Below are positions 49,061 through 51,040 of a stretch of DNA of 64,000 nucleotides, in pieces (the first letter of the stretch is position 1; every line of letters begins with the position of its first letter). The translations under genes were made by a program, and so were the position numbers. The notes beneath the pieces were generated by a model. That model was not told the DNA's origin. It made no database searches and was given only the letters and a program-made list of their open reading frames with translations. Location: the NCBI GenBank assembly GCA_003116875.1, contig BCKT01000001.1:387763-451762 (forward strand), in the 5' to 3' direction. Source of the stretch: Takashimella koratensis (Eukaryota > Basidiomycota > Tremellomycetes > Trichosporonales > Tetragoniomycetaceae).

Positions 49061-50401
49061 TTAGAAATACAGTCGTTGCGCGGCTTGAGGGGAGGTCTCG
49101 ACAGGGCAGTAAGGGCATTTGACAGATCGACGGCTGTGGTTAGCGCTGAGATCAAATACTAACTTACCCTCCCTTGAGGAGACGGTTGAAGCTCTCCTCG
49201 GCAATGACGTGGCCGCAGGTGAGCATCTTGGGTGGGTTCGTCTCGGTCGCTTGTTCTTTTGATACAGGGCAGACAAACACCGAGTGGTACCTACGTGCCG
49301 AAGGGAGCGCGACTTCCATCTGGATACGTTAGTAGAGCCTATGACCAAACTCACCGGCAACTCCTGCCATGTTCGAACATTGCCTACGTGCTCGCCCATC
49401 ACCCTCCTCGCCTTCTCAATCACATTCAGCGCCTGTCCCCTTGACCCTAGATCAACGGCCACCGCCAACGGATCCTCCTTGGGTAATCCGTGCCGCCGAC
49501 AAAACTCGTCCCTAAACATAGAGGTGAGTGGTGCGTTTGCATTTTCGTATGGCGACACGACCTCGTCCGTTTCCATCTCGTCAAGCTCGGCGTCGATCTT
49601 GATGTCGGTCTTGTACAGGCAGGAAGTGACGAGTTGAAGGACGGGCTGGGTCGAGACGTAGCTGAACAAGTGAGAGCGAGCGTATACGATAGCCTCGGAA
49701 GGTGAGAGAGATAGGAAGACGGCACGGTGGAGATGGTAGGGGAGAGAGGAAGGGTGTGGTGGGGCTGAAAGGAACGCTTCGTTCTCTTCGCACCATCTGG
49801 GGTTAGAAAGAACAAGCTAACAGCTCACCGGATAGCAGGAGTCAAGTCACCAGCGTCAATTTGGCTGATAATCTCGTAAAGCTCTTCGCTTAGTTCTCGC
49901 TTGCTGTCGTCGTAGACAAGGCCAGTTTCCTGCTGTCAGCTGAGAACGGGTAGACGCTCACCTCTTGTAACGCCTCGACTGCCTCCCAGAGCCCGCGTCG
50001 ACCGAGAGACGCGAGAACCGCACGGTCAAGCGCGGACGATGCGGAAGGTTGCGAGAAGAGTGGTGGGTCATCAAAATCGGAGCTGAGGCTGGACAAGTTT
50101 GGAGGGAATGCCTAAAAGTTAGTATGGGGTGAAAGCTCTCACCCACCTTGTCGACAGACTTTCCCAACGATCCTAGGGACGCATACCACGCCTTCAACCC
50201 CTTCTCCACTTCCTTTTTGGCCCTGGCGACGTTCTTGCTCAGCTCGAGGACGACCTGTTTGGGGTCGGACCCGGCGTCGAGGCGTTGACGGGCGACGGAG
50301 AAGTGGTGGTCGAGAAGGCCCTGGAGAGGGCCGGATGAAGATGTGGACGCGTTAGAGGCGAGGTCCTCGAGCGCTGCGAGGGAGTCGGCGACGTCGGACA
50401 T
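49061..50401 (-). CDS. RMD5: RMD5 (GID2), RING-like subunit of the GID/CTLH ubiquitin ligase
   Basis: Exons 50401-50147, 50111-49962, 49929-49829, 49796-49355, 49319-49168 and 49133-49061 encode 390 residues. The middle holds the LisH/CTLH region (RELSEELYEIISQIDAGDLT, then AIRWCEENEAFL, then IVYARSHLFSYV). The C-terminus is the Rmd5 RING-like domain: MEVALPSARRYHSVFVCPVS, KEQATETNPPKMLTCGHVIA and SVKCPYCPVETSPQ. The domain lacks some canonical RING cysteines, as is normal for Rmd5. With Fyv10 it forms the catalytic pair of the GID ligase, known in yeast for degrading gluconeogenic enzymes. Introns are 32-35 nt. Confidence 0.93.
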
Positions 50402-50603: not shown

Positions 50604-51040
50604 ATGTCGCAGCAACAGAACCCATACACCTCTTCTCGGCCAGACGAGAGCCACATCCCGCCTCGCCAGGCGCCCAAGGGCAACGAGAATGTCGAGTACA
50701 TCTGCGGTAGTGAGTTCCGCTCGGGTTGTGCGATTCGTTGGTCAGCACGAGACGTGGGTTGCTTTAGCTGACAATGGTAAGACTGCGGGACAAAGTCGGT
50801 GATGAAGGGTCAAGAGATTATTCGATGCCGAGAATGCGGGCACAGGGTCATGTACAAGCCCCGAACGTCAAGAAGTGAGTGTTGTTCTCTCATATATTGT
50901 TTAGACTTTTCGTGGAAACCTTTGCTGACGTTTACAGTTGTAAGTTGGCACAGTGGGCACGATTAATGGGCACAATGTCGAGTCGAACGCTCTGGTGATT
51001 CTCTGCTGACACCTTTTAGGTCCAATTCGAGGCGCGATGA
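50604..51040 (+). CDS. RPB12: RPB12 (RPC10/RPABC4), zinc-ribbon subunit shared by RNA polymerases I, II and III
   Basis: Exons 50604-50709, 50782-50874, 50938-50939 and 51020-51040 encode 73 residues. Exon 3 is two nucleotides, TT. The zinc ribbon is CX2C-X13-CX2C: Cys34, Cys37, Cys51, Cys54 (YICGNCGTK and IIRCRECGHRVMYKPRTSR). The conserved end IVQFEAR is read only when the TT microexon is included. Both flanking introns have consensus donors (GTGAGT, GTAAGT), GCTGAC branch points and pyrimidine-AG acceptors. Skipping the microexon would replace the last residues with an unrelated tail. The protein is a structural subunit of all three nuclear polymerases. Confidence 0.9.
50938..50939 (+). 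other. 2-nt microexon (TT) of RPB12
   Basis: TTTACAG precedes and GTAAGT follows the dinucleotide TT. It converts the phase-1 end of exon 2 (A) into ATT (Ile) and puts GTC CAA TTC in frame, giving the family's VQFEAR end. Confidence 0.8.

What the first reader, a model, noticed from the sequence alone, without database searches (positions are those of the whole stretch)
50875..51019. 2-nt microexon restores the conserved C-terminus of RPB12
The intron between RPB12 exons 2 and 4 contains TT flanked by a consensus acceptor (TTTACAG) and donor (GTAAGT). Each half-intron has its own GCTGAC branch point. Only inclusion of the two bases gives the family end IVQFEAR; skipping gives an unrelated tail. 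Exons this small are close to the lower limit imaginable for exon recognition, and this is an essential polymerase subunit.
Basis: partly seen in the sequence, partly recalled or inferred. Interest (0 to 1): 0.88.

Follow-up and report, generated by a model that had tools for sequence, protein, structure and literature searches.

The report
Two-base exon in polymerase gene RPB12
In this genome, likely that of a trichosporon-like yeast, the gene for RNA-polymerase subunit RPB12 is predicted to be pieced together through an exon only two bases long, and database protein models of related fungi often leave the family's sequence at exactly that spot.

Summary
TT at 50938-50939 lies between introns of 63 and 80 nt, each with its own GTRAGT donor, GCTGAC branch site and YAG acceptor. 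With TT, RPB12 ends RIVQFEAR; without it, SPIRGAMMKMNPC. TT is the only one of 5 frame-restoring internal exons that gives the family's length. The two-intron arrangement appeared in 0 of 100,000 shuffles. The best new support is from relatives: 8 of 13 named Tremellomycete models break at exactly this junction, against 1 of 153 other listed proteins. Two broken tails fit, codon by codon, a skipped reading of VQFEAR-stop; others run into one or the other intron. A 2-nt exon is therefore probable in both Tremellales and Trichosporonales. One correction: keeping the first intron (63 nt, no stop) also ends in VQFEAR, with 21 extra residues, so 'only inclusion' is too strong; relatives argue against that rival. 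No transcript and no ortholog DNA was available. One-nucleotide exons are published for plants and Fusarium, so this is a striking new member of a known kind.

The parts
50604..50709 (+). RPB12 exon 1 (start codon to ...ICG + A)
   Evidence: translation; frame set by the zinc ribbon of PF03604
50710..50781 (+). intron 1, 72 nt, GTGAGT ... CTGAC ... AAG acceptor
   Evidence: the weak AAG acceptor is demanded by the zinc-ribbon frame; branch A 11 nt from the intron end
50782..50874 (+). exon 2 (zinc ribbon to ...KPRTSR + A)
50875..50937 (+). intron a, 63 nt, GTGAGT ... TTTACAG; a multiple of three without a stop in frame
50924..50929 (+). branch site GCTGAC of intron a
   Evidence: ruler
50938..50939 (+). 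2-nt exon TT, completes the isoleucine codon A|TT
50940..51019 (+). intron b, 80 nt, GTAAGT ... CTTTTAG
51005..51010 (+). branch site GCTGAC of intron b
   Evidence: ruler
51020..51040 (+). last coding exon, VQFEAR and stop TGA

Best explanation
The 145-nt stretch 50875-51019 of this RPB12 gene is most likely two ordinary introns of 63 and 80 nt around a constitutive 2-nt exon, TT, whose inclusion gives the conserved C-terminus RIVQFEAR. Shown: a complete set of signals for each intron, the frame result, the rarity of the arrangement, and the pattern of broken orthologous models. Inferred: the two introns are removed one after the other by intron definition, because the acceptor of a (CAG|TT) and the donor of b (TT|GTAAGT) lie two bases apart, too close for both to be occupied at once. 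Each intron has its own complete signals, so no exon recognition is needed and either order would work. The full U1 match GTAAGT (consensus recalled) would make up for the poor exonic context of donor b. Also inferred: the exon is inherited at least from the common ancestor of Trichosporonales and Tremellales, and arose because two introns occupy places two bases apart near the end of the gene.
For: Sequence and translation. Of 12 distinct solved RPB12 chains matched, 11 align to the last residue of the TT-included form. 146 of 174 listed relatives end RT.[RK]xV.[FY][ED]AR. Splice-site scores within the range of the genome's introns. TT is the only one of 5 frame-restoring internal exons of up to 70 nt giving the family length. 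0 of 100,000 shuffles with strict frame-restoring signals. In 264 kb, both strands, one chain of two complete introns separated by 1-8 nt was found, this one, against 0 in reversed DNA. The genome-wide gap-2 pattern occurs only here; of the 4 gap-1 and 5 gap-3 sites, one gap-3 site has an upstream donor and a downstream branch site plus acceptor. Orthologous models: 8 of 13 named Tremellomycetes break at this junction against 1 of 153 other listed proteins (read; Fisher 9e-10). The tails of K. mangroviensis (SPIRSSL) and Cryptococcus sp. DSM 104549 (SAIRGSL) fit codon by codon the shifted reading of VQFEAR-stop, i.e. models that skip the two bases; a random heptapeptide would fit with probability 1.4e-6. 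Cryptococcus sp. DSM 104548 reads through intron a to ...AV|VQFEAR, compatible by hand with an acceptor AG followed by TT. Naematelia and K. shivajii read RIV and then on, as into intron b. Precedent for 1-nt exons with transcripts: PMC4674806, PMC8831610, PMC12940212.
Against: No RNA of any kind was available. No ortholog DNA was available: relatives are protein models, so their gene structure is inferred from the shape of their errors. Five of 13 named Tremellomycete models are intact and could come from genes that lack one of the introns. The intron-a-retained form is open and in frame in this genome. The bare junction signal shows no excess: backward control 7 against 1 genome-wide, and in 264 kb with a loose donor 11 real against 13 reversed over gaps 0-12. 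Parts of some broken tails (P0001 after SE, the first part of P0013) are not explained.
Confidence: 0.92

Rival explanations
1. Intron a is not an intron: exon 2 runs on to 50939 and only intron b is removed, giving RPB12 with 21 extra residues (SECCSLIYCLDFSWKPLLTFT, then V in place of I) before VQFEAR.
For: The 63 nt are a multiple of three without an in-frame stop, and the product ends in VQFEAR. The Cryptococcus sp. DSM 104548 model has the same form (P0015).
Against: The stretch carries donor, branch site and acceptor at the 71st, 89th and 84th percentile of 70 putative introns. The P0015 insert shares only its ends with this one, which is what the splice sites spell (by eye). Among the 174 listed relatives only P0004 (4 extra residues) and P0015, both Tremellomycete models, end in VQFEAR with an insert at this place. 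All 8 unnamed tremellomycete-like frames (P0005, P0007, P0008, P0121-P0125) read into the same phase-1 donor as S-E or S-K and end without VQFEAR, after 2, 3, 43, 17, 17, 15, 17 and 27 residues counted from that S (whether each end is a stop codon or a contig edge was not checked).
Confidence: 0.05
2. The exon is skipped as the normal form, one 145-nt intron is removed, and the protein really ends SPIRGAMMKMNPC.
For: A gene finder would call it, and apparently did so in K. mangroviensis and Cryptococcus sp. DSM 104549. Longer introns exist here: 18 of 200-300 nt against 2 in the decoy, so length alone does not exclude 145 nt.
Against: It replaces the conserved end of a subunit with one copy above cut-off; the skipped tails of different species differ from one another after SxIR, as expected of out-of-frame sequence; 42 introns of 35-140 nt were found against 0 in the decoy, while the 140-160 nt bin is barely above it (4 against 2).
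Confidence: 0.02
3. The arrangement is a stwintron (nested twin intron) rather than an exon: an inner intron splits a splice signal of an outer one and no base is retained.
For: Two consecutive introns, stepwise removal, known from fungi (PMC9024468, abstract and outline).
Against: Both donors and both acceptors are complete without the other intron, and the frame needs the two bases in the mRNA.
Confidence: 0.01

Closest known systems
1-nt exon of APC11 (Arabidopsis, land plants): PMC4674806 (abstract and Discussion read), PMC8831610 (passages)
   Same: Constitutive exon far below any exon-definition size in a conserved gene; missed by annotation; removal of the flanking introns one after the other proposed.
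   Different: One base, plants, shown by cDNA and reads; here two bases, fungus, not shown by RNA.
1-nt exon of CYP621A in Fusarium: PMC12940212 (abstract, Introduction, Discussion read)
   Same: Fungal; found because phases could not otherwise be joined inside a conserved motif; shared by orthologs.
   Different: One base, a P450 of unknown function, confirmed by SRA reads; here a basidiomycete and a general polymerase subunit.
Exons of 2-5 bp in Arabidopsis, Drosophila and human (statement in the Introduction of PMC12940212; the paper it cites was not seen)
   Same: Same size class.
   Different: Details of those exons not seen by me.
Recursive splicing ratchet points (PMC8605326, start of abstract in the listing)
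   Same: Juxtaposed acceptor and donor, stepwise removal.
   Different: Described as lying within long introns; that no base is retained is recalled. Here two bases stay and the introns are 63 and 80 nt.
Stwintrons of Hypoxylaceae (PMC9024468, abstract and outline read)
   Same: Two consecutive splicing reactions at one place in fungal genes.
   Different: An inner intron splits the donor of the outer one and the whole intervening sequence is removed.

Membership tests
RPB12 / RPABC4 (PF03604) | Zn-ribbon match above the curated cut-off | tested here: met
   54.6 bits against cut-off 24, residues 32-63; the skipped and a-retained forms score 54.6 and 54.0, so this does not tell them apart
RPB12 / RPABC4 (PF03604) | C-terminus xVx[FY][ED]AR right after RTx[RK] | tested here: met
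   met at family length only by the TT-included form among those enumerated; 146 of 174 relatives have it
RPB12 / RPABC4 (PF03604) | single gene in this genome | tested here: met
   one match above cut-off in the genome, three below it at E 0.45-1.74
ultra-short (1-5 nt) exon | complete canonical introns on both sides | tested here: met
   donor, branch site and acceptor of each scored
ultra-short (1-5 nt) exon | reading frame and conserved motif require the bases | tested here: met
   with the a-retained form as the exception told above
ultra-short (1-5 nt) exon | conserved at the same place in orthologs | tested here: inconclusive
   tails of orthologous models are as skipping or retention would give; no ortholog DNA (searches gave no fungal locus)
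ultra-short (1-5 nt) exon | transcripts containing the bases | not testable with these tools
   no RNA data
stwintron | an inner intron interrupts a splice signal of an outer intron | tested here: not met
   both introns have uninterrupted signals and TT must be retained
recursive ratchet point | acceptor directly abutting donor, zero bases retained (recalled definition) | tested here: not met
   two bases lie between the sites and are needed in frame

The most novel reading that the evidence does not exclude
A 2-nt exon has been kept since the common ancestor of Tremellales and Trichosporonales in a subunit shared by RNA polymerases I, II and III, and its fragile two-step removal works as a splicing-fidelity gauge: when the spliceosome is limiting, skipping or retention yields RPB12 with a wrong tail and lowers all three polymerases at once.
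Probability: 0.07. Interest if true: 0.85.

Novelty: new member of a known kind. Interest (0 to 1): 0.6.

Why it matters
It would place a near-minimal exon in a subunit shared by all three RNA polymerases (names; essentiality recalled from yeast, not tested), in a genome with mostly short introns, which makes it a clean natural test of how two introns two bases apart are removed in order. It would also explain why RPB12 goes wrong in 8 of the 13 named Tremellomycete models seen here, Cryptococcus among them; those database C-termini are likely annotation errors.

Tried and rejected
Considered and rejected: a single intron with a shifted donor or acceptor (enumerated GT-AG, GC-AG and AT-AC pairs: four products end in VQFEAR, two lose part of the zinc ribbon or the linker, two keep all or all but one base of intron a); other internal exons (5 of frame-restoring length up to 70 nt, 4 end in VQFEAR, only TT at family length; the other three were not scored for signal strength); a second RPB12 copy (none above cut-off); stwintron and zero-base ratchet (definitions not met).

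Led nowhere: viral contigs and prokaryote genomes gave two viral loci and one bacterial locus, not used. Paper searches for Trichosporon with microexon and RPABC4 with microexon held no paper. Two Cryptococcus papers mention microexons only as a mapping option (passages); the '2-nt' in PMC5006051, PMC13149111 and PMC8042270 concerns other things (passages). The neighbour upstream had no Pfam match above cut-off. The frame test printed nothing for any site, RPB12 included, because it asks for 40 codons on either side; it is uninformative.

Weak points of my own numbers: the 174 relatives are those listed (best 120 each of 2209 and 1610 hits), each a 90% cluster, ranked by profiles that hold some broken tails, so 8 of 13 against 1 of 153 is not an unbiased sample. 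Sorting was by pattern plus eye, no row dropped. The first Fisher test used placeholder counts for the other proteins and is replaced by that. The intron set is ab initio.

Full report
What is there. The RPB12 gene reads 50604-50709, 50782-50874, 50938-50939, 51020-51040 on the + strand. The product with TT is 73 aa, matches the zinc ribbon PF03604 at 54.6 bits (cut-off 24), and 11 of the 12 solved RPB12 chains matched align to its C-terminal residue. It is the only copy above cut-off in the 25.1-Mb genome. Without TT the tail becomes SPIRGAMMKMNPC. The Pfam domain ends before this point, so the domain match does not tell the three forms apart (54.6, 54.6, 54.0 bits); the argument rests on the tail.

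The signals. From 264 kb of the same genome I drew 70 putative introns (17 in reversed DNA), whose consensus is GTRAGT, CTRAC preceded mostly by G, and YAG. Intron a (63 nt) scores at the 71st, 89th and 84th percentile for donor, branch site and acceptor; intron b (80 nt) at the 34th, 89th and 76th. The branch As sit 10 and 11 nt from the intron end, against a median of 12. Both lengths lie in the range 35-140 nt, where a stricter scan found 42 introns against 0 in the decoy; that scan also found 18 of 200-300 nt against 2, so longer introns exist too.

Chance. In the 264 kb, both strands, one chain of two complete introns separated by 1-8 nt was found, this one; reversed DNA has none. Over the whole genome GCTGAC-N2-16-YAG-NN-GTRAGT occurs once, here; with one base between the sites 4 times, with three bases 5 times. 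The backward control patterns occur 7, 7 and 8 times, and in 264 kb a loose form is found 11 times against 13 in reversed DNA: the bare junction signal is at background. What stands out is where it lies: of the ten sites, only RPB12 and one gap-3 site (L038) have a donor upstream and a branch site with acceptor downstream. Dinucleotide shuffles of the interval gave 0 of 100,000 frame-restoring arrangements with strict signals and 23 with loose ones.

Alternatives inside the interval. Of AG|x|GT internal exons of a frame-restoring length up to 70 nt, 5 were possible and 4 end in VQFEAR, but only TT gives the family length. Among single introns one matters: with intron a retained and b removed, the product is ...RTSR-SECCSLIYCLDFSWKPLLTFTV-VQFEAR, 94 aa. 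By its own refutation rule (a donor elsewhere giving the same C-terminus) it is formally a rival. That 63 nt are of length 3n and open by chance is roughly one in eight (my estimate), so it is no strong evidence for coding.

Relatives. Three protein searches listed 174 relatives (read). 146 of 174 end RT.[RK]xV.[FY][ED]AR. Of the 28 that do not, 16 are among the 21 Tremellomycete or tremellomycete-like proteins and 12 among the other 153. Of those 12, one (Rhizopogon, P0173) is broken at this junction; the others have added residues after EAR, a substitution within the end, or are cut short. Named Tremellomycetes (six genera looked up; Cryptococcus and Tremella recalled): broken are Cutaneotrichosporon oleaginosum, Kwoniella shivajii, K. 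dejecticola, K. mangroviensis, Naematelia encephala, Cryptococcus neoformans, Cryptococcus sp. DSM 104549 and DSM 104548 (8 of 13); intact are K. heveanensis, Saitozyma sp., Tremella mesenterica, Papiliotrema laurentii and Mrakia frigida (the last with S in place of I). Fisher's exact test of 8/13 against 1/153 gives 9e-10, with the sampling caveat told under Tried and rejected.

The errors have shapes that a missed 2-nt exon predicts. Skipping: K. mangroviensis SPIRSSL and DSM 104549 SAIRGSL fit codon by codon the shifted reading of a DNA that encodes VQFEAR-stop; 896 heptapeptides do, which a random one meets with probability 1.4e-6. C. neoformans P0013 contains CNSRLD, a reading of the same end in the third frame (1.9e-5 per hexapeptide, so about one in a thousand for a tail of its length); the first part of its tail is not explained. 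Reading into intron a: S-[EK] after the arginine or lysine (A|GT GAG or A|GT AAG) in C. oleaginosum, DSM 104548 and all 8 unnamed metagenomic frames. Reading on after the exon: RIV-S in K. shivajii, RIV-R in Naematelia and K. dejecticola; these three could also come from genes without intron a. In the 8 unnamed frames the read-through of a does not reach VQFEAR, which speaks against the retained form as ancestral. All this is inferred from protein models; no ortholog DNA could be fetched.

How it works. The acceptor of a and the donor of b are two bases apart, so the factors bound at each would exclude one another (general knowledge of footprints, not tested). Each intron is complete and short, so intron definition with one removed after the other is the likely path, as proposed for APC11 (PMC4674806, Discussion). 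The order cannot be told from sequence.

What is known. One-nucleotide exons with transcript support: APC11 (PMC4674806), VPS55 (PMC8831610, passages) and CYP621A in Fusarium (PMC12940212), whose authors call theirs the first for a fungal gene and mention 2-5 bp exons in Arabidopsis, Drosophila and human. PMC9142197 (passages) lists a smallest exon of 5 bp in a Sirobasidium bglA gene. My searches for 1- and 2-nt exons under twelve phrasings (of the two papers that matched a 2-base phrase, on HLA-F and on a disease database, neither was opened), for small-exon phrases (20 of 58 listed), and for microexon with Cryptococcus (10 papers, three opened), Trichosporon and RPABC4 showed no paper on this exon. 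The library holds open-licence papers only, so this does not prove that it is unpublished.

Verdict. A well-supported prediction: a constitutive 2-nt exon in RPB12, very probably shared by Tremellales and Trichosporonales. New member of a known kind; the interest lies in the gene, the repeated mis-annotation across the class and the ease of a decisive test.

Noticed in passing
50710-50781: Intron 1 of RPB12 must end in AAG (ATGGTAAG|A) to keep the zinc-ribbon frame; this acceptor scores below all 70 training acceptors, while its branch site TAGCTGACA is at the 97th percentile, 11 nt from the end.
   Followed up: partly
L038 (G000:C17:232056-232888): The only other site of the gap 1-3 scans with an upstream donor and a downstream branch site plus acceptor (3 bases between the sites). 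Whether it lies in a gene was not settled.
   Followed up: partly
protein P0173 (Rhizopogon salebrosus): A non-Tremellomycete model breaks right after RTKR as SVGPV, which hints that an intron at the same phase-1 place is older than the class.
   Followed up: no
protein P0170 (Mrakia frigida): RTKR-S-VQFEAR: serine at the codon that the 2-nt exon completes; either a real substitution or a two-base model error.
   Followed up: no
50149-50401, - strand: A divergent reading frame starting with ATG at 50401, about 200 bases from the RPB12 start; no Pfam match above cut-off.
   Followed up: partly
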